A stretch of DNA of 64,000 nt from Bacteroidales bacterium. Lineage in GTDB: Bacteria; Bacteroidota; Bacteroidia; Bacteroidales; UBA932. Positions 22,339-30,274 of the stretch are shown here, in pieces. The stretch is from NCBI GenBank assembly GCA_017428245.1, contig JAFRRF010000034.1, forward strand, positions 124,001-188,000, read 5' to 3'. Each line of letters starts with the position of its first letter. Position 1 is the first letter of the stretch. The notes under the pieces are model-generated. The model saw only the letters and a list, made by a program, of their open reading frames with translations, made no database searches and had not been told where the DNA came from. The translations under genes were made by a program, and so were the position numbers.

Positions 22339-23163
22339 ATGGCAATAATCGAACCATTTTGGAATCCTAAAACAGACATGTCGGGGTTCCTCTTCAGTAT
22401 CAAGAAGGTTCATCGGGAAGCTTATTTTGATGTTTCCGACATCCCGGAAACCGTCCTCCCCTTCTTCTCCTTCGCCTATCTGACCGATGGAGAAGTACTG
22501 ATAGAAATCGAAGGGAAACCGTATCTCTGCCAGACAGGTCAGGTTTTGATCATTCCACGCAACGTGCCGTTCCGCGTCCTGCACTTCAACCGGAACACAG
22601 GTTTTGAATGCGGCTTTTCCCTGCGCGTCCTCAAAGATGTCTCGTATGAATGCCTTCACAGCCCGCAACCGGTTCTCCAGTCTTTCACACCCGAAGATGC
22701 ATCTTTTACGACGGCATTGCTGGAAGTAATCTATAAATCCTACCAGCAGAAGGATTATTTCGTGACGGCGAGCGCACTCGATCTCTTCCTCTGCCGGATC
22801 AAACCGCGCGAAGACCATCCGGACAACGCCATCGTGAGCCGTTTCCTCGAACTGGTCTTTGACCGGAACAACAAACCCGGCAAAGTGTCGACCTATGCCA
22901 GTTCCCTCTGCATCACGCCCAACTATCTGAACCGCCTTGTGCGCGCCCATACCGGCCACTCCGCAATGGACTGGATTGAAATTTCCCGTCTGAACCTGGC
23001 CAAATCCCTGCTCAAGCAGAACCAACTGCAGGTCTCGGAAATCGCTTCGGCCGTCGGCATTGACGACCAGTCATACTTTACACGTTTTTTCAAGAAGAGC
23101 GAAGGCATCACACCGACTCAGTACCGGGACCAGGTATTGAGCAAGCTCCGGCACTCAAAATAG
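22339..23163 (+). CDS. AraC family transcriptional regulator
   Basis: A 274-residue regulator with an N-terminal cupin-like sensor domain (about 1-150, with LTDGEVLIEIEGKPYLCQTG) and a C-terminal double helix-turn-helix (about 170-270: YASSLCITPNYLNRLVRAHTG, then EIASAVGIDDQSYFTRFFKK). It lies between the LolA gene and the thioesterase and may regulate the surrounding acyl-lipid genes (inference). It overlaps the convergent thioesterase by 9 bp. Confidence 0.87.
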   Translation: MAIIEPFWNPKTDMSGFLFSIKKVHREAYFDVSDIPETVLPFFSFAYLTDGEVLIEIEGKPYLCQTGQVLIIPRNVPFRVLHFNRNTGFECGFSLRVLKDVSYECLHSPQPVLQSFTPEDASFTTALLEVIYKSYQQKDYFVTASALDLFLCRIKPREDHPDNAIVSRFLELVFDRNNKPGKVSTYASSLCITPNYLNRLVRAHTGHSAMDWIEISRLNLAKSLLKQNQLQVSEIASAVGIDDQSYFTRFFKKSEGITPTQYRDQVLSKLRHSK

Positions 23164-23895
23164 AATCTCGGCGCAGAAGGCGGAATGTCCGTCGACGCGA
23201 CCTTCCACCATCCAGCCGTCTGCGACTGGTGCACGAAACAGTTCAACCGTCTCTCCGACCCGGGTCTCCTTGTTGAAATTGATGCGGATGCTGCGTACCC
23301 GGCGGGTGGCCAGCGTGTCGAAATCGAGACAGTCCATCGCCCAGACCACGTATTTCGCATTGTTCGTATGCCCGATGATATCCACGTCGGAGTAAGCCAC
23401 TTTGTGCTCGCCGGCCCTCTCTATGCCGGCCGAAGGCATCACCACCTTCCCGCACGGCGTATCCAGGGCGCTGTCCCGGCACTCCGTGTCGAGCGGCAGT
23501 TTTCCCTCGAGATGTTCGCGGCGCAGCAAGCGGCGCGTCGCCACATCGATAATCAGCCACGATGACGTCGCCAGTACGGCCGGAGCGCCGTCAGGGCCGA
23601 GCAGCCGGAAGTCACGCACATAAAAAGGACCTTCAAAGCCCTTGTGCCAGGTCTGAAGTTCCACCTCGTCTTTCCACCGTGGCATCTCCGGGAAAATGAT
23701 GTGCATCCGCGACAGGACCCAGGCCGTGCCGTAGCGCTGCAGATCGTCGTAGCCGAATCCCAGGGAATCGGCGGAAATGTAGGCTATTTCCTGGGCCAGG
23801 TCCATAAAAGCGCCCGGCTTCAGGTAATGCGCCACGTCCGTGTCATAACAGGTCACCTTCAGGTGGCGGACCGTCTTTTTATCGGGATTTTCCAT
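23155..23895 (-). CDS. Acyl-ACP thioesterase (FatA/FatB-like)
   Basis: A 246-residue double-hotdog enzyme hydrolysing acyl-ACP to free fatty acid. Signatures: LQRYGTAWVLSRMHI in the first hotdog and the SDVDIIGHTNNAKYVVW block (about residue 170), which carries the catalytic Asn/His region in plant and bacterial acyl-ACP thioesterases. It is the last gene of the TIR-PEGA-kinase/AAA run, 3 bp after that gene's stop, so it may be co-transcribed with it. Functionally it fits the FakAB/PlsX/ACP genes nearby: thioesterase and FakAB form opposite arms of acyl turnover. Confidence 0.87.
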   Translation of the reverse strand: MENPDKKTVRHLKVTCYDTDVAHYLKPGAFMDLAQEIAYISADSLGFGYDDLQRYGTAWVLSRMHIIFPEMPRWKDEVELQTWHKGFEGPFYVRDFRLLGPDGAPAVLATSSWLIIDVATRRLLRREHLEGKLPLDTECRDSALDTPCGKVVMPSAGIERAGEHKVAYSDVDIIGHTNNAKYVVWAMDCLDFDTLATRRVRSIRINFNKETRVGETVELFRAPVADGWMVEGRVDGHSAFCAEILF

Positions 23896-23898
23896 AGC

Positions 23899-25683
23899 TT
23901 ACCCCCTCGTTTTGTATTCCTCCGAAGACCCGTCGAAGCGATATCCGATCGGTGTCCGTTCCTTTTTGCGACCCAGGGAGGATGGATTGCAACGGATGGA
24001 ATCCTCCAGATGGTGCTGGGCAATCGTCTCGTCGGCCAGGGCGGCCACCAGCGCGGCTTCGTTGGCGATGAACGCGATGTCGGAAGACGCATAACCTTCA
24101 GTCAGCGCCGCCAGCCGGTCGAAATCGATACCGTCGGCCAACGGGCGTCCTTTAAGATGATGCATAAACATCTGCCGCCGGGTTTCTTTTTCGGGGGCGG
24201 GCACTTCGATCTGCAGGTCCAGCCGCCCTTTACGCAGGACCGCCGGGTCTATCATATCCATCCGGTTGGTGGTTCCGATGACGAAAATGCCGCGCTGCGC
24301 GCAGTTGTTCAGTTGGGAAAGGAATTCGTTGACCTCTTCCGGCCGGTGCCGGGCCGCCTCGCTGCCGCGGGCCGGAACGAACGAGTCGAACTCATCGAAA
24401 CAAAGCACAGTCGGGGCTTTGGCCGCCGCTTCCTGGAAGAGAGCCGCAATCTTCCCCTGCGTTCCGTGGATATAAGTGCTGCCCAGATCCGATCCGTTGA
24501 CCACCATATAATTGAAATGCGATTCCTCGGCGAATTTTTCGGCAAAGTAGGTCTTGCCGCAGCCCGGAGGGCCGTAAAGCAGCATCCCGTTGGGCGGAAG
24601 GAGACGGTATTTCCGGGCCTTTTCCTTATCGCGCAAGACCCAGATCACCCGCTCCGTCAGCATCTTCTTCAGGTTCTCCATACCGGCAACGTCGGCAAAA
24701 CCGCCCCGGCTGGCATTGCGCTGCAGTGATTTTTTAAGCTCCGTGCCGTCCGTCGTAGCCTTGAGACCGTCCGACTGGGATGGCGCCATCCGTCGCCCAT
24801 CCCCGGCCGTCTGATGCCGGCTGTCCGACTGCCCGTCGGAGAGCATTTCCAGCATCCGGGCCGGATCCGGCCGGCCGGCCGGATCCAGGCGCAGGCCTGC
24901 CAGCACGACATTCTGCAACACCCGGTCGACGGAATGCATCGCTGCCGGCCACACAGGTTCGCGACGACGGGCGTCCCGCATCCGGTCACGTCGTTCCGGG
25001 AACGGATCTCTTTCGTCCATCGAGCAGTTCCACGGCGCCTGGCCGCTGATCAGGGTATAGAGCAAAGCCGCCACCGAGAAAGCATCGCTCCGGGACGTAA
25101 ACGTTCCCGTCAAAGCCTCGGGCGCCGTATAGAGCAGGTTCAGGTCGGCCATCGGGAAAGGAGGTTCACCCATCGTTACGTCCCCGTGGGCATGCCCCAG
25201 ATCGATGATCTTGGGCGAGAGTCCTTCAGGCGTTTCCTCAAGCAGGATGTTGCGCGGAGTGATATCGTTGTGGTTAAGGCCGGCATCCCGGCGCAGGTAC
25301 ACCAGGCCGCTCAGGACGGCGACGGCCACGGCCCGCGCTTCCGAAGAGGAAAAGCGACGTCCTTCGTTCAGATATTCCGACAAGAGCGCTCCCTGGAAAA
25401 ACTGCATTACCAGATAGGGATACGTCCGTCCCTGCACGGTGACCGTCCCGTCGCCGACATACGAAATGACATTCCGGTCATTGACACGGCGGCTGTTGAC
25501 GATTTCCTCCACCTCGCCCTCCACATACCAGGCTGCAGGCACAGCCTCCGGATTGAAAAGTTTCAGGAAGCAACGACGGCCTGCCGCGTCGGTGACCACG
25601 TAACTGTCGTTATGCAGTCCCTCTTTGATGAAACGCTGGACCCGGAAAGGTCCGATCTGCGCATTGTTATCCAGGCGGACCAT
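23899..25683 (-). CDS. Fusion of Ser/Thr protein kinase and AAA+ ATPase
   Basis: A 594-residue cytoplasmic protein with two enzymatic domains. Residues about 10-285 form a protein kinase fold: Lys41 in CFLKLF, a catalytic loop HNDITPRN (Asp140, Asn145), DLG (Asp161) in place of DFG, and APE at 187-189. The glycine-rich loop is degenerate. After a linker (about 290-320), residues about 325-560 form a classical AAA+ module: Walker A GPPGCGKT (371-378), Walker B VLCFDE, sensor TTNRMD and arginines in LRKGRLD, as in FtsH/CDC48-type ATPases. No membrane helix is seen. The gene lies 9 bp behind the PEGA gene and 3 bp before the thioesterase. Confidence 0.85.
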   Translation of the reverse strand: MVRLDNNAQIGPFRVQRFIKEGLHNDSYVVTDAAGRRCFLKLFNPEAVPAAWYVEGEVEEIVNSRRVNDRNVISYVGDGTVTVQGRTYPYLVMQFFQGALLSEYLNEGRRFSSSEARAVAVAVLSGLVYLRRDAGLNHNDITPRNILLEETPEGLSPKIIDLGHAHGDVTMGEPPFPMADLNLLYTAPEALTGTFTSRSDAFSVAALLYTLISGQAPWNCSMDERDPFPERRDRMRDARRREPVWPAAMHSVDRVLQNVVLAGLRLDPAGRPDPARMLEMLSDGQSDSRHQTAGDGRRMAPSQSDGLKATTDGTELKKSLQRNASRGGFADVAGMENLKKMLTERVIWVLRDKEKARKYRLLPPNGMLLYGPPGCGKTYFAEKFAEESHFNYMVVNGSDLGSTYIHGTQGKIAALFQEAAAKAPTVLCFDEFDSFVPARGSEAARHRPEEVNEFLSQLNNCAQRGIFVIGTTNRMDMIDPAVLRKGRLDLQIEVPAPEKETRRQMFMHHLKGRPLADGIDFDRLAALTEGYASSDIAFIANEAALVAALADETIAQHHLEDSIRCNPSSLGRKKERTPIGYRFDGSSEEYKTRG

Positions 25684-25692
25684 AAGCCCTGA

Positions 25693-28026
25693 TTAAAAGA
25701 CGCGCAGGATATTGTTGCCTTTGGAATCACGGTCACCCAGTTTGATACCCACGGTAACGACGAACTCCGCTCTTTGGAAAGGCACGACGTAAGGCTCGGA
25801 ATAATAGCGTTCCGTGACTGTCGATGTCTTGATTGCTCCGTTGGGAGCGAGGATATTGGCCTGCCCGTAAAACAGCTGCACACCCGCCTTGAGATTGACA
25901 TTGAAGATCGGAAAGCGCGAAGAGATCTCGCCGCCGAGGAAAGCGTCGTGTCCGGACATATGGGTCAGCGGAAGGAGTTTCGTCAAAGGCGGATACCAGG
26001 CATACGAAGTCATCAGGCAGATATCTGCATTATTATGGAGGGCGCCGCCCAGACGGAATTCCCCGTTGAGGAAAAGGATCGACAAGGCCGGGATAAAGGT
26101 GGTATTGGTATACAGGTCCGCGTTCTTCCCGCCCTGAAGGATATCTTCGATCAGATTGCCCTTCGAATTGTAATAATAGATCTTTTGCAAAGGATCAGTC
26201 TGCCAGAAAACGCTCGCTTTGGCAACACTGGTCGTCAGCCCGTGGAAAATGCGGAGTTCGGCGAAAGAGACATCACCGATCCGCTGGAAATTTTTGGCCA
26301 GCTTGCTGTCGGCCGGGAAGCACGGTGCAGGACGCTTCAGATAATAGTTCACGCCGAGAATATGGAAATCTTCCCTTGAATAAGAAAGAAGATTCAAGCG
26401 TTCGCGCTTGCCGTGGTACCAGAAATAACCGTCATACGCCCTGGTCAGGTTGCTGCGCATAAGCTGGACGTGATAAAGAGAGTTGCTCGCCGGGAGTTCG
26501 ACGATGCCGGGCGTCTTGACATTGTCCACATAGACGACCTGATTCTTGCCCCGTCCCTTGGTGACAACGATTTTCAGGCTGTCCGCGTCGCTGGATATGA
26601 CCAGCGGATAGGTTTTCTCCAGGGAGATGCGGTGATCCTGCTCCCCGCCACCCTGTGCGACAACTTCCTCCGACCAGGGGAAATAGCCTTCTTTTTCGTA
26701 ATGCAGCTTGTGGTAACCTTCTCTCAGTTGTATGTTCAGCGGCGTCGTCCCGGCAGGTTCGCCATTGACGGACACCTTGCAGTATGCGGGATCCGAGGTG
26801 ATATGATAGGTTACATACCGCTTCAGGGACAGATTCAGCAAGTGATCCTTTTCCTCTTCGATATCGAATTCATATCGCTCATGTTCCGGAAGGAAACCGT
26901 CTTTTTCGACCCGCAGTATATGGTGTCCCGTTTTGACCTTGCCTGTAAACGGCACTTCTCCGACCTCTCTCTCATCGATAAACAAACGGGCTCCCGTGGC
27001 ATTCTCCGCATCCTGCACGGTCAACCTGCCATAGATGGCTGAGAGGGTGAAGTCGAGGTGGACTTTCTCGCCTTTGTCGATCTTGATATTCTGGACACCG
27101 AACTTGAAACCATCCGATTCCGCACGGATGACATACTGACCGGGGTGCAGCGGAATCACATTTCCTTCGTAGATATTATAATAGCTGATCTCCTGGTCGA
27201 CATTGAAACTCTTCACCTGGCTAGGCTGCAAGTTGACAGGAATGCCGCTGATATCCAGTTTGGTGACTGAATCGAAGTACAGGCCTTCCTCCGGTTTGAT
27301 ATCGACAGACAGCATGGCAAAAGCAGGTGTCAGTTCAATCCTGTGGTAAAGATCCGACGACGACGGGTTTTGGGGGACGACAAGCACCGTATCGATCCGC
27401 TCAAATCCGTTTTTCTCGATTCTCACGTGATGCTCCCCTTCCGAAAGCGAAAACTGGTCGGCAAGCATACCCGTATTCTGATCAACGGAAATGATCGAGC
27501 GTTCCGGAACGGTCCGGATATGGACCGTATGGGTGATTTCCCGCCTGGCATCTTGATTAATCAGCACATAAGCGGTACGCTCCTTCCCCATCGACACTTC
27601 GATGACGCCTTTGCGGGGTTCATCGAACGGGTTTGGGGCTACCGTGATAAGCAGCACATCCGCATCGACGGCCGTCGCACACCATTCAGGCGTGGCCGTT
27701 ACTTCCCACTTCTTTCCGGCGGTAACATAGATGCTGTCCCGTCTCCCGGCCCCCGGAATCAGAAGGGTTTCCTTGGAAAGATTCAAATCGGCCAACTTCG
27801 TCAGGGCGGAGCGGCACTGGCGGATCAGTCTGTCGGCCTGGCCGATCTGGTCCTTGGTGACACCCGGAGCCTTTTTGGCCGATTCAAGTGTCTTAATGGC
27901 CAGGTCATATTGCTTTGTGGTATAATACTCGACCGCCTCGCTATATCGCATATCAAATGATTTCTGAGCAAATAACGGCATCGACACCAGCAGAAGTGTC
28001 ATCAACAGAAGAAGGATTCTTTTCAT
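25693..28026 (-). CDS. Exported PEGA-repeat protein with BACON-like domain and probable outer-membrane barrel
   Basis: A 777-residue exported protein. A signal peptide (1-20) is followed by TPR-like helices (about 25-75, AVEYYTTKQYDLAIKTLESA) and a BACON-like beta domain (about 85-160, KWEVTATPEWCATAV). Several PEGA modules come next (for example GARLFIDEREVGEVPF with HHILRVEKDGFLPE, and CKVSVNGEPAGTTPLNI with YHKLHYEKEGYFPW). The last 200 residues have alternating aromatic/polar strands that look like an outer-membrane beta barrel. PEGA domains are thought to bind surface or wall polymers. It overlaps the TIR gene by 4 bp (ATGA), so the two are translationally coupled. Confidence 0.78.
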   Translation of the reverse strand: MKRILLLLMTLLLVSMPLFAQKSFDMRYSEAVEYYTTKQYDLAIKTLESAKKAPGVTKDQIGQADRLIRQCRSALTKLADLNLSKETLLIPGAGRRDSIYVTAGKKWEVTATPEWCATAVDADVLLITVAPNPFDEPRKGVIEVSMGKERTAYVLINQDARREITHTVHIRTVPERSIISVDQNTGMLADQFSLSEGEHHVRIEKNGFERIDTVLVVPQNPSSSDLYHRIELTPAFAMLSVDIKPEEGLYFDSVTKLDISGIPVNLQPSQVKSFNVDQEISYYNIYEGNVIPLHPGQYVIRAESDGFKFGVQNIKIDKGEKVHLDFTLSAIYGRLTVQDAENATGARLFIDEREVGEVPFTGKVKTGHHILRVEKDGFLPEHERYEFDIEEEKDHLLNLSLKRYVTYHITSDPAYCKVSVNGEPAGTTPLNIQLREGYHKLHYEKEGYFPWSEEVVAQGGGEQDHRISLEKTYPLVISSDADSLKIVVTKGRGKNQVVYVDNVKTPGIVELPASNSLYHVQLMRSNLTRAYDGYFWYHGKRERLNLLSYSREDFHILGVNYYLKRPAPCFPADSKLAKNFQRIGDVSFAELRIFHGLTTSVAKASVFWQTDPLQKIYYYNSKGNLIEDILQGGKNADLYTNTTFIPALSILFLNGEFRLGGALHNNADICLMTSYAWYPPLTKLLPLTHMSGHDAFLGGEISSRFPIFNVNLKAGVQLFYGQANILAPNGAIKTSTVTERYYSEPYVVPFQRAEFVVTVGIKLGDRDSKGNNILRVF

Positions 28027-28994
28027 CGGTTCAGTTCGTTAATTATCTTTTCCAGACTAGGATTCGTTTTCACAGACAGGGCGTATTCTATGCAGGCAAG
28101 CACATTTTCGCGTTCGGACGGGCGACGGGAAATGAGATAGAGGGCGTAGGAATCCCGGGCATATTCCGCCCAGGCGGCATGGATGGAATCGAGACGGGCG
28201 GTAATGGAAGAAGTCCGGCCGGACAGGTCCTGGTTGAAGAGTCCCTTGAACGTGCTATCTCCATACCGGCTGCCGACCGCCTTCGCACTGTCCAGCAGAA
28301 AAAGCGCCTGTTTCAGACCGGCTATCTGGTCCGCAGTCGTTTCCAGCGTATTGGGAGAGGCTTTCATCGCCTCGAAACAGGTCACAAGGGAATCAGACCC
28401 GGCAATCAAATCCTCGTACTGACGGGAAGATTCCATCGCGGCGCGATTTTCGGCCCGGTCCCTGCTCCTGGACAGGGCGAAAACCACGATGGCCAGCACC
28501 AGCAGAGCTGCCAGCGAGACCGCCGACCAGGCCAATATCTTTTTCTTGCGCCCCGACACGACGTTCCTGCCGCCGACCGTCCCTTCCTCTGGATGGGCAA
28601 TGGCTGTCCGGATATCTTCCATCAACTTCGTTTCCACGGGACAGAGTTCCTTCCGGCGCCAGTTGAAGTTCCCCAGCATCAGTTCCAGGTCCGGAGGCAT
28701 TGTCTCGCTGCCGTCGATGATATAGGGGATGATCGTTCCGCTATGCTTATGATTGAAGGCGTATGTAACCTCTCCGCGCGTAAATCTGGAACGGAAGGAA
28801 TTCTGGCTGGCCAGAAAAAGGAACACCGTGGAATCGTCGACGGCCTCAGCCAGTACCTGCGGAAAGTTCTGCCCCGCTTCGATACCCTCACGGTCAATAA
28901 AAAAAGTAAGTCCGGACGCAGTAAGGGCCGAACAGATTTCATCAGCTATCTTTGAGTCTTTACGAGAATAGCTAATAAACACATCATATGCCAT
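28023..28994 (-). CDS. TIR-domain protein anchored by one transmembrane helix
   Basis: A 323-residue protein. Residues 1-125 are a TIR domain: YDVFISYSRKDSKIADEI, a DREGI segment near residue 37, and TRGEVTYAF with Glu75 at the position of the catalytic glutamate in NAD-cleaving TIRs. A linker and a Lys/Arg patch (GRKKK) precede one membrane helix (about 153-175). The C-terminal 145 residues are probably periplasmic, helical and without a recognised domain. The topology puts TIR in the cytoplasm and a sensor-like domain outside. The -7 element TAAATTTG at 29023-29016 precedes it. First gene of the TIR-PEGA-kinase/AAA operon. Confidence 0.85.
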   Translation of the reverse strand: MAYDVFISYSRKDSKIADEICSALTASGLTFFIDREGIEAGQNFPQVLAEAVDDSTVFLFLASQNSFRSRFTRGEVTYAFNHKHSGTIIPYIIDGSETMPPDLELMLGNFNWRRKELCPVETKLMEDIRTAIAHPEEGTVGGRNVVSGRKKKILAWSAVSLAALLVLAIVVFALSRSRDRAENRAAMESSRQYEDLIAGSDSLVTCFEAMKASPNTLETTADQIAGLKQALFLLDSAKAVGSRYGDSTFKGLFNQDLSGRTSSITARLDSIHAAWAEYARDSYALYLISRRPSERENVLACIEYALSVKTNPSLEKIINELNR

Positions 28995-29015
28995 TGTTCC
29001 GAGACATTATCCTTG

Positions 29016-29045
29016 CAAATTTAACAAAAAAGTTTGTTATTTTTG
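29016..29045. promoter_or_regulatory. Divergent promoters of the TIR operon and the RyR-domain gene
   Basis: TAAATTTG on the minus strand (29023-29016) lies 22 bp before the TIR ATG at 28994. TATTTTTG on the plus strand (29038-29045) lies 20 bp before the GTG at 29065. The two elements are 14 bp apart, so one bound factor could affect both. Confidence 0.65.
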
Positions 29046-29064
29046 TGTAATCCCTTAGTAACAC

Positions 29065-29406
29065 GTGAAAAAGAACGACACACATTATATTCCCGCCCCG
29101 GCCGACCTTTCCGACGTCGTCCTGCCGGAAGGACTGGTCCGGCTTACCGAGACCATCGCCCGCAACACACACGAAGTCTGGTCAAAAAAAAGGATGGACG
29201 AAGGATGGCGCTATGGAAGAATCCGCAGTGAAGCCCGGAAACTGCATCCGAACCTGATTCCTTACGAATGTCTGCCGGAAGCCGACAAGGAATACGACCG
29301 TGCCACAGCCCTCAATGCCATCAAACTGCTGGTCAAATTGGGGTATTCGATCGAGTCCCCTTCATCGGAGCTCGGCGTCCAGGCCGAGGGACGTGCTGTA
29401 GAATGA
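29065..29406 (+). CDS. RyR-domain protein
   Basis: A 113-residue cytoplasmic protein. Residues about 24-95 match the RyR domain of ryanodine receptors and its bacterial homologues: THEVWSKKRMDEGWRYG, LIPYECLPEADKEYDR and TALNAIKLLVKLGY. Function in bacteria is unknown; in ryanodine receptors the module binds ligand-like groups. It starts with GTG, supported by its distance to the -7 element, and no ATG is available. It is divergent from the TIR operon. The last 45 bp overlap the convergent gene. Confidence 0.82.
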   Translation: MKKNDTHYIPAPADLSDVVLPEGLVRLTETIARNTHEVWSKKRMDEGWRYGRIRSEARKLHPNLIPYECLPEADKEYDRATALNAIKLLVKLGYSIESPSSELGVQAEGRAVE

Positions 29407-29787
29407 AAGTCCGTTGATTTTCAGACGGTCGAAAAGAGGTTTGAGTTTGGGTGCGGCGTCGAGGTTCAGGACGGCACGGCCGCCGGAAAAGCTTTCCACC
29501 AGTCCGGCCGGGAGTTTTTCGAGCAACTTTTTCGATGCCATGTCGAGCGCCATATTTCCGGCGCGCCCCGCGTCGAGTTGCAGGACCACGCGCGGCAGTG
29601 CCATTTCCACTATCTGTACGTCGGCCGAAACCGTATGCGTCAGCGGACGGTTGAGGACCGGGAGGGAAATTGATGCTTCGTAGGACAGGGTCAGGGTATC
29701 TGCGGATTTATATTGGATGCCGATGTTCTGTCCGCTTTTCTCGCGGACCAGCCTGGAAATCTCATCGTATGAAACGGAAAGAATCAT
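29362..29787 (-). CDS. Conserved small protein of unknown function
   Basis: A 141-residue protein without signal peptide or membrane helix. It begins MILSVSYDEISRLVREKSG and has alternating hydrophobic strands in the first half and a LKINGLSFY segment near the end. I do not recognise the family; the pattern suggests a beta-rich lipid-binding-like fold, but this is a guess. It has its own -7 element (TAAATTTG, 29814-29807). It overlaps the RyR gene tail by 45 bp, yet codon pattern and promoter support both. Confidence 0.6.
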   Translation of the reverse strand: MILSVSYDEISRLVREKSGQNIGIQYKSADTLTLSYEASISLPVLNRPLTHTVSADVQIVEMALPRVVLQLDAGRAGNMALDMASKKLLEKLPAGLVESFSGGRAVLNLDAAPKLKPLFDRLKINGLSFYSTSLGLDAELR

Positions 29788-29806: not shown

Positions 29807-29835
29807 CAAATTTAACGATTGTTTCACTATTTTTG
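29807..29835. promoter_or_regulatory. Divergent promoters of the 29.4-kb gene and the tandem-repeat protein
   Basis: TAAATTTG on the minus strand (29814-29807) and TATTTTTG on the plus strand (29828-29835) point outwards, 20 and 26 bp from their start codons (29787 and 29861). Confidence 0.65.
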
Positions 29836-29860
29836 TAAGGGTACGATAAAATCTTGTCCC

Positions 29861-30274
29861 ATGAAACACATTCTCTTCCTCTTTCTCACGACAACAGCCC
29901 TGTTTGTTGCCGGTGACGTCTTTGCCCAGCGTCTCCAGGACGGCAGTTACAGCACCGTCGGTTATATCAAGAGCGACGGTACCGTACAGGATGGCTCTTA
30001 CCGGACCATCGGGCACATCAAAAGCGACGGCACCGTACAGGACGGCTCCTATCGCACCGTCGGACACATCAAGAGCGACGGTACCGTGCAGGACGGGTCT
30101 TACCGGACCATCGGGCACATCAAGAGCGACGGCACCGTGCAGGACGGTTCCTATCGCACCGTCGGACACATCAAGAGCGACGGCACCGTACAGGACGGAT
30201 CTTACCGGACCATCGGGCACGCCGATTCCAGCCTCCGGAAAGAATGGTTGGCATGGTTTTATTTCTTCAGGTAA
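29861..30274 (+). CDS. Secreted tandem-repeat protein (17-residue repeats, beta-flower-like)
   Basis: A 137-residue protein: signal peptide (1-22, ending DVFAQ), then residues 26-120 made of five full and one partial copy of a 17-residue unit with consensus QDGSYRT(I/V)GHIKSDGTV. A short tail (DSSLRKEWLAWFYFFR) ends the protein. Copies alternate TIG and TVG, showing duplication of a two-unit block. Such short DG-rich repeats form closed beta-hairpin assemblies, and similar Bacteroidetes proteins have been called five-fold beta-flower proteins (from memory). Role unknown, cell-surface or periplasm. Confidence 0.75.
   Translation: MKHILFLFLTTTALFVAGDVFAQRLQDGSYSTVGYIKSDGTVQDGSYRTIGHIKSDGTVQDGSYRTVGHIKSDGTVQDGSYRTIGHIKSDGTVQDGSYRTVGHIKSDGTVQDGSYRTIGHADSSLRKEWLAWFYFFR
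29936..30220 (+). repeat. 51-bp tandem coding repeat, about 5.6 copies
   Basis: In-frame 51-bp units with near-identical sequence. Odd and even copies differ in the same codons (ATC/GTC, GGG/GGA), so the real repeat of recent origin is a 102-bp dimer. The number of copies may vary between strains. Confidence 0.85.

What the first reader, a model, noticed from the sequence alone, without database searches (positions are those of the whole stretch)
23155..29406. TIR / PEGA / kinase-AAA+ operon divergent from a RyR-domain gene
Four tightly packed genes (ATGA overlap, 9-bp gap, 3-bp gap) encode a membrane-anchored TIR protein with the catalytic-position Glu, an exported PEGA/BACON protein with a probable barrel, a Ser/Thr-kinase-AAA+ fusion and an acyl-ACP thioesterase. 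A RyR-domain gene is divergent from the same promoter region. This layout spans outer membrane, periplasm, inner membrane and cytoplasm. It could be an envelope-damage or phage-sensing signalling system with NADase or kinase output. I do not know a described system with this composition.
Basis: partly seen in the sequence, partly recalled or inferred. Interest (0 to 1): 0.82.

Follow-up and report, generated by a model that had tools for sequence, protein, structure and literature searches.

The report
TIR–PEGA–RyR envelope signalling module
A bacterial genome, by its relatives a gut Bacteroidales, carries a membrane-tethered immune-type enzyme (TIR) paired with an exported sensor-like protein and a ryanodine-receptor-type domain that probably binds the enzyme's signal, and relatives add channel-like genes with the same domain, which suggests a bacterial counterpart of cyclic-ADP-ribose signalling to channels.

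Summary
The genes, spacings and domains are as described, but the grouping needs correction. The conserved unit is TIR–PEGA plus a RyR-domain partner. The kinase–AAA+ and thioesterase genes are neighbours: 0 of 10 stretches around close kinase orthologues hold TIR or PEGA, and 0 of 13 named PEGA loci hold the kinase. Of 12 complete TIR–PEGA loci, window included, 11 have a RyR-type gene alongside: a small RyR domain, a membrane protein ending in RyR whose family profile matches plant channels DMI1/CASTOR, or an MscS-like gene plus a split RyR-type subunit. The window genome carries that last pair on another contig. The window RyR keeps the four ligand residues of phage RyDEP, reported in 2026 to cleave TIR-made 2'/3'cADPR, at identical spacing; TIR keeps its catalytic Glu. 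In one relative a kinase with the same tail replaces TIR beside PEGA. Best reading: PEGA relays an envelope state to TIR; its cADPR-type product acts on RyR-gated channels; the small RyR buffers or removes it. No biochemistry supports this yet; trigger and any anti-phage role are unknown.

The parts
28023..28994 (-). TIR protein: N-terminal TIR domain (residues 5-112), one membrane helix near residue 153, C-terminal domain that should be extracytoplasmic
   Evidence: topology inferred
28770..28772 (-). codon of Glu75, opposite the SARM1 glutamate; invariant in 8 of 8 aligned proteins
25693..28026 (-). PEGA/BACON protein: signal peptide (by eye), short helical region, BACON, PEGA repeats, C-terminal strands ending in Phe; predicted sensor or adaptor
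29065..29406 (+). stand-alone RyR (PF02026) protein, divergent from TIR
29170..29298 (+). H-x2-W-x21-H-x16-D motif of the RyR domain, spacing as RyDEP H75/W78/H100/D117
   Evidence: residues from PMC13232231
28995..29064 (.). 70-bp divergent intergenic region that should hold both promoters
   Evidence: promoter function inferred, not scanned
29362..29787 (-). 141-aa gene of unknown family, tail-to-tail with RyR; in L087 and L032 the membrane-RyR gene lies directly beside the orthologue of this gene
   Evidence: no remnant of the membrane-RyR gene in the window
23899..25683 (-). kinase-AAA+ fusion, motifs present; adjacent but NOT part of the conserved TIR-PEGA-RyR unit
23155..23895 (-). acyl-ACP thioesterase; goes with the kinase neighbourhood, NOT part of the unit

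Best explanation
TIR-PEGA-RyR is an envelope-to-cytoplasm signalling module. The exported PEGA/BACON protein senses an envelope state and acts on the periplasmic tail of the single-pass TIR protein (inferred). The cytoplasmic TIR domain then converts NAD+ into a cyclic-ADP-ribose-type signal (inferred from the conserved glutamate). The signal is bound by RyR domains on channel-like membrane effectors in relatives, and in this genome perhaps by a split MscS-like plus RyR-type pair encoded on another contig; these change ion flux (inferred). The small stand-alone RyR protein buffers or hydrolyses the signal (inferred from RyDEP). Shown here: the genes, the conserved linkage, the conserved residues and the homologies. 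The kinase-AAA+ and thioesterase genes are neighbours only.
For: Linkage: 11 of 12 complete TIR-PEGA loci carry a RyR-type gene alongside. In the genus, genomes with full PEGA have a PF02026 match at E<=0.01 in 5 of 5 against 4 of 32 without (Fisher 2.9e-4). In the order sample, RyR genomes hold TIR_2 in 20 of 25 against 70 of 222 of the rest, and 8 of 25 (window genome included) have TIR within 5 kb of RyR against 0.18 expected (TIR rows were truncated, so 8 is a lower bound). Chemistry: Glu75 invariant in 8 of 8, aligned to SARM1. 15 of 15 small RyRs that I aligned keep the RyDEP motif at exact spacing; the four columns are invariant in the 7 RyR-type proteins of A3. PMC13232231 reports PF02026 proteins that cleave or bind 2'/3'cADPR. 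Channel: a profile of four order-level members plus two from TIR-PEGA loci (L181, L182) finds only DMI1 (1.5e-5) and CASTOR (1.6e-4, 2.3e-4) in the PDB; the window-genus type matches the four over 484 columns (7e-13); the split subunit matches their second half (2.8e-16) and pairs with an MscS-like gene. Sensor: in L183 a kinase with the same tail replaces TIR beside PEGA, and that genome has no PF02026 hit.
Against: No biochemistry. The window locus lacks a linked channel gene; the split pair is on another contig and its subunit has lost one of the four ligand residues. In the genus test, three of the five PEGA-positive genomes (G003, G033, G036) reach only 23.7-25.9 bits, below the Pfam cut-off of 27.4; over the cut-off it is 2 of 5 against 4 of 32, no association, so the test leans on the weaker domain of the membrane proteins (that domain is backed). 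L185 has TIR-PEGA but no RyR nearby (its contig ends 4.3 kb past PEGA) and none in its genome, 82% complete. L032 has both RyR genes without TIR-PEGA; L162, L163 and L165-L167 show RyR pairs for which I did not show a TIR neighbour. Five of ten membrane-RyR proteins have other motif spacing, and L167 has Lys for the first His. The ligand residues are conserved family-wide (PMC13232231), so they do not prove this ligand. The channel model has mean pLDDT 65.8, worst in the membrane part; its fold search never ran. Single-protein RCK matches stay below cut-off.
Confidence: 0.55

Rival explanations
1. RyR is only an off-switch: TIR is an NAD-depleting enzyme or signal maker whose effector is elsewhere, and RyR mops up or cleaves leaked cyclic-ADP-ribose to set a threshold. 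No channel is involved in this genome.
For: The window has the small RyR and no linked channel. All four RyDEP residues, with the catalytic pair, are present. RyDEP cleaves; six of eight tested homologues bound the signals and those homologues did not cleave (PMC13232231).
Against: 10 of 12 TIR-PEGA loci carry a membrane RyR protein, a relative of it, or the MscS-like plus split pair, and this genome has such a pair elsewhere.
Confidence: 0.2
2. One reading: kinase-AAA+ and thioesterase act with TIR-PEGA in this lineage as a recently assembled operon.
For: Gaps of 9 and 3 bp suggest co-transcription. In G003 a thioesterase orthologue (by eye) lies about 10 kb beyond TIR-PEGA.
Against: 0 of 10 stretches around close kinase orthologues have TIR or PEGA; 0 of 13 named PEGA loci have the kinase.
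Confidence: 0.08
3. A Thoeris-like anti-phage system with a new sensor and effector.
For: Same logic of TIR plus signal-binding partner; TIR cross-matches ThsB-type models; phage RyR proteins counter Thoeris signals.
Against: 48.5 against 220 bits for ThcB4; no NCBIfam or PADLOC defence match for the eight partner proteins scanned; TIR is paired with an exported protein; no mobile-element sign was found, though only plasmids (PEGA) and phages (TIR) were searched.
Confidence: 0.2
4. TIR is a non-catalytic scaffold and the association with RyR is structural or accidental.
For: No activity was tested; many TIR domains are scaffolds (recalled).
Against: Glu75 invariant in 8 of 8; TIR-RyR linkage recurs in several families of the order with different TIR proteins.
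Confidence: 0.07

Closest known systems
Thoeris (TIR ThsB plus effector ThsA and later types)
   Same: A TIR enzyme with the conserved glutamate beside a partner predicted to read a NAD-derived signal.
   Different: TIR is membrane-anchored and paired with an exported PEGA protein; partners are RyR, channel-like and MscS-like proteins; below curated Thoeris scores, no defence match for the partners scanned. Yirmiya et al. 2025, a survey of TIR systems cited in PMC13232231, was not held, so overlap with it is unknown.
RyDEP and the R12/PF02026 family
   Same: Same domain (3.7e-31) and the same four ligand residues at identical spacing.
   Different: Host-encoded beside the TIR gene; phage RyDEP works against the host signal (PMC13232231).
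Plant channels CASTOR/POLLUX/DMI1
   Same: The membrane-RyR family profile matches only DMI1 and CASTOR in the PDB at E up to 1.
   Different: The match covers 113-120 of 722 columns; the bacterial proteins end in a RyR domain; no such full-length gene was found in the window genome.
Animal cADPR-ryanodine receptor signalling
   Same: RyR domain as putative reader of a NAD-derived signal controlling a channel.
   Different: Only the R12-type domain is shown to be shared; the bacterial pore parts resemble other families.
Bacterial 'putative ryanodine receptor' (PDB 3nrt; B. thetaiotaomicron by recall and PMC13232231)
   Same: Closest solved bacterial stand-alone homologue of the window RyR (2.3e-34).
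   Different: No function is given in the call.

Membership tests
Thoeris | TIR domain with the catalytic-position Glu | tested here: met
Thoeris | match to a curated Thoeris TIR model above its cut-off | tested here: not met
   NF058526 48.5 bits against 220; PADLOC ThsB matches partial, no cut-offs given
Thoeris | adjacent known effector (SIR2-SLOG, macro or caspase type, recalled) | tested here: not met
   no such domain in the window genes scanned or in the partners scanned
Thoeris | protects against phage through a TIR-made signal | not testable with these tools
   needs assays
RyR domain family PF02026 | score above the Pfam gathering threshold | tested here: met
   window RyR 107.6 bits against 27.4
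RyDEP-type signal binder or hydrolase | H-W-H-D ligand residues at RyDEP spacing | tested here: met
   positions from PMC13232231
RyDEP-type signal binder or hydrolase | binds or cleaves 2'/3'cADPR | not testable with these tools
   needs purified protein
CASTOR/DMI1-type channel (relatives' membrane-RyR protein) | profile match to the family | tested here: met
   A6: DMI1 1.5e-5, CASTOR 1.6e-4 and 2.3e-4, over 113-120 columns
CASTOR/DMI1-type channel (relatives' membrane-RyR protein) | same fold and pore in the window-genus type | tested here: inconclusive
   profile link 7e-13; model pLDDT 65.8; fold search of this model never accepted
MAD6, IetA/IteA or CDC48 families (kinase-AAA+) | score above curated cut-off | tested here: not met
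   66.9 against 460, 92.8 against 510, 180.7 against 802.65 bits

The most novel reading that the evidence does not exclude
Bacteria run a complete TIR to cyclic-ADP-ribose to RyR-gated ion-channel pathway, driven by an envelope sensor, in which the gating half (RCK-like plus RyR) has been kept while the pore was exchanged between a CASTOR/DMI1-like and an MscS-like scaffold. It would be a prokaryotic counterpart of cADPR-ryanodine receptor signalling and a natural host setting for RyR domains before phages used them against TIR signals.
Probability: 0.35. Interest if true: 0.92.

Novelty: new variant of a known kind. Interest (0 to 1): 0.78.

Why it matters
Whether cADPR-type signals act on ryanodine receptors through the R12 domain is open; the 2026 RyDEP preprint points to it as a subject for future studies. 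A compact bacterial system in which TIR, a stand-alone RyR domain and RyR-bearing channel-like proteins are encoded together would make that directly testable with small proteins. It would also add channels as a possible output of TIR signalling and an exported PEGA protein as a possible input.

Tried and rejected
Rejected: kinase-AAA+ and thioesterase as components. Rejected: a RyR-TIR fusion in G011:C29, suspected from neighbouring hits; the translation shows two genes in different frames. Rejected: a remnant of the membrane-RyR gene in the window; the only hits below E 0.1 are the RyR gene itself. Not confirmed: the C-terminal barrel of PEGA (in one search the strands showed no clear alternation). 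Dead ends: plasmids with PEGA and phages with TIR gave nothing. The order search with the PEGA profile scored only two candidates per genome; most of its 14 positive genomes match only in part of the repeats or the start, and G057 is the one clear relative besides the window. Dropped before counts: L180 (4.1-kb fragment) and L183 (kinase instead of TIR) from the 12 loci; G020, with a partial PEGA-repeat hit, counted as PEGA-negative.

Literature: PMC13232231 read in parts 1 and 2 of 6 plus passages; PMC7016017, PMC8195603, PMC13142454 and PMC13174449 by passages; every other paper by search listing only. Searches for a described TIR-PEGA-RyR system: 15 of 162 listed; 15 of 33; 25 of 157; 3 of 3; 12 of 17; 20 of 71; 12 of 304; 12 of 65; 8 of 495. 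No title or abstract start in these listings describes one; unlisted papers were not seen. Burroughs et al. 2015 and Yirmiya et al. 2025 were not held; from recall the former treats nucleotide sensor domains broadly, so an earlier mention of RyR beside TIR cannot be excluded.

Full report
WHAT IS THERE. The four-gene row is on the minus strand and RyR on the plus strand, with 70 bp between the TIR and RyR starts. Kinase motifs (HNDI, DLG) and AAA+ motifs (GPPGCGKT, CFDEFD) are present. TIR has one hydrophobic helix near residue 153, then about 150 residues that should lie in the periplasm (inferred). PEGA starts with a signal-peptide-like stretch (by eye) and its C-terminal part is modelled mostly as strands (mean pLDDT 79.7, pTM 0.40). 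Foldseek listed 50 of 1,908 matches, chiefly immunoglobulin-like and other beta-sandwich proteins, so the barrel is neither shown nor excluded.

THE KINASE AND THIOESTERASE ARE NEIGHBOURS. I fetched 14.7-19.9 kb around ten close kinase-AAA+ orthologues (70-78% identity, L032-L041) and searched them with the window proteins. TIR or PEGA gave a hit in 0 of 10 (E below 1e-8). Five of ten keep the thioesterase directly beside the kinase, in the same gene block as the window. The names of that block's genes (DegV, PlsX, ACP, LolA, GH3, LPLAT and so on) are by eye or recalled; only AraC, thioesterase, beta-flower and DUF3108 were scanned. The reverse test agrees: in the DNA held for 13 named PEGA loci (L175-L187, 4.1-22.3 kb; found with one peptide pattern, so not exhaustive) the kinase gene was found in 0 of 13. 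TIR-PEGA is thus a separate unit lying beside that block. In G003 it lies beside the same acyltransferase-like genes, with a thioesterase orthologue (by eye) about 10 kb beyond, so the location may be old in the genus.

THE CONSERVED UNIT IS TIR-PEGA PLUS RyR. In 199 family genomes, 11 had a PEGA match and 16 a TIR match. The eight with the close TIR (48% identity or more) have PEGA directly beside it; in G036 the PEGA gene is split by contig ends. The other 11 plus the window make 12 complete TIR-PEGA loci. RyR-type genes flank 11 of these 12: a small RyR in 7 (window, L175, L177, L178, L184, L186, L187), and in 10 a membrane RyR protein, a relative of it, or an MscS-like gene plus a split RyR-type subunit. 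L185 has none; its contig ends 4.3 kb past PEGA. These are related genomes, not 12 independent events.

STATISTICS AND THEIR LIMITS. In the genus (37 genomes), PF02026 at E<=0.01 occurs in 5 of 5 PEGA-positive and 4 of 32 PEGA-negative genomes (Fisher 2.9e-4, ignoring phylogeny and incomplete assemblies). Three of those five reach only 23.7-25.9 bits, below Pfam's 27.4, because the gene there is the membrane type with a weaker RyR domain; over the cut-off it is 2 of 5 against 4 of 32. Of the four PEGA-negative ones, G024 has two other TIR genes near RyR and G018 a TIR-like gene by eye; G007 ends 2.1 kb past RyR; G015 has RyR genes but no TIR seen. Over the order (247 genomes), RyR genomes carry TIR_2 in 20 of 25 against 70 of 222 of the rest (p 3.5e-6). 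TIR lies within 5 kb of RyR, start to start, in 8 of 25 (window genome included) against 0.18 expected from rounded genome sizes and uniform placement. TIR rows were truncated, so 8 is a lower bound: L164 shows a further TIR gene beside RyR (TIR_2 1e-8).

THE RyR RESIDUES. A May 2026 preprint (PMC13232231; parts 1 and 2 of 6 and passages read) reports that a phage PF02026 protein, RyDEP, cleaves the TIR products 2'cADPR and 3'cADPR, that six of eight tested homologues bind them without cleavage by the homologues, and that ligand contacts are H75, W78, H100 and D117. The window RyR has H36, W39, H61 and D78: the same spacing. 15 of 15 small RyRs that I aligned keep it; these were picked by hand from the fetched loci. 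The same four columns are invariant in the 7 RyR-type proteins of A3. Of the ten membrane-RyR proteins, five have exact spacing and five do not, and L167 has Lys for the first His. The preprint says that these residues are conserved across the family, so they support nucleotide binding in general rather than one ligand.

THE MEMBRANE PARTNERS. The larger RyR proteins (about 645-793 aa) have N-terminal membrane helices, alternating helix-strand domains that look Rossmann-like (from motifs and the model) and a C-terminal RyR domain. A profile of six of them (four from other families of the order or the family, two from TIR-PEGA loci) finds only DMI1 and CASTOR in the PDB, at 1.5e-5, 1.6e-4 and 2.3e-4 over 113-120 columns. 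The window-genus type is homologous to the four (7e-13). The split subunit matches their second half (2.8e-16) and is encoded beside an MscS-like gene (MS_channel_2nd 2.1e-9, 6e-10 and 1.6e-9 in the three scanned). The window genome (93.8% complete) gave no full membrane-RyR gene but has this pair on contig 39, 55-56% identical to the pair linked to TIR-PEGA in L086. Its subunit has lost one of the four ligand positions and is not detected by the PF02026 model, so its RyR assignment rests on profiles A3 and A8 alone.

THE SENSOR SIDE. In L183 the gene before PEGA is a Ser/Thr kinase (by sequence; not scanned alone) whose last ~96 residues match the TIR protein's tail (1.5e-11 alone, 4e-8 among all fetched frames). 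No PF02026 gene is found in that genome (85% complete). So the cytoplasmic output can be exchanged while tail and PEGA stay together, and here RyR is absent with TIR. This is one case. In another family, G057 has PEGA, two TIR genes and a RyR match within 10 kb of one contig.

MODEL. Shown: gene content, linkage, residue conservation, homology. Inferred: PEGA senses an envelope state and acts through the TIR tail; TIR makes a cADPR-type signal; RyR domains on channel-like proteins read it; the small RyR buffers or removes it. The trigger is unknown. Phage defence is possible, but nothing here is specific for it: matches to known defence proteins are domain cross-matches and the eight partner proteins scanned match no defence model.

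NOVELTY. TIR signalling through a nucleotide to a partner is a known kind (Thoeris). The exported PEGA input, host RyR as partner and channel-like outputs were not seen in the listings. Two works that could bear on this were not held. I therefore rate it a new variant of a known kind.

Noticed in passing
L183 / L094 (genome G096, contig 343): The kinase-PEGA pair lies in a cluster with an FHA-domain gene and, by eye, phosphatase-like and small WXG100-like genes.
   Followed up: partly
L190 8149-10208 (window genome, contig 39): MscS-like gene plus split RyR-type subunit inside a cluster that looks, by eye, like polysaccharide uptake and esterase genes.
   Followed up: yes
L155, L156, L157: RyR genes beside a protein with TIR and, by eye, a SIR2-like N-terminus, and a very large STAND-like ATPase gene; looks like a different conflict system.
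   Followed up: no
L158 and L174: Large proteins with AAA-type matches ending in RyR domains, near a TIR gene and a gene with a 'VGVTGHR'-type start (SLOG-like by eye).
   Followed up: partly
L042 and L047: Distant kinase-AAA+ or AAA relatives beside similar-looking ~130-aa small proteins, perhaps a separate kinase-AAA module.
   Followed up: no
window 29362-29787: 141-aa gene without Pfam or NCBIfam match, found in 6 of 10 close kinase stretches and beside the membrane-RyR gene in L087.
   Followed up: partly
window 29819-30274: 5-fold beta-flower protein made of near-identical short repeats.
   Followed up: no
L193 and L194 (G018, G024): A second kind of RyR locus in the genus: small RyR followed by TIR genes with a membrane helix (one scanned: TIR_2 5.5e-15) and many exported proteins.
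   Followed up: partly
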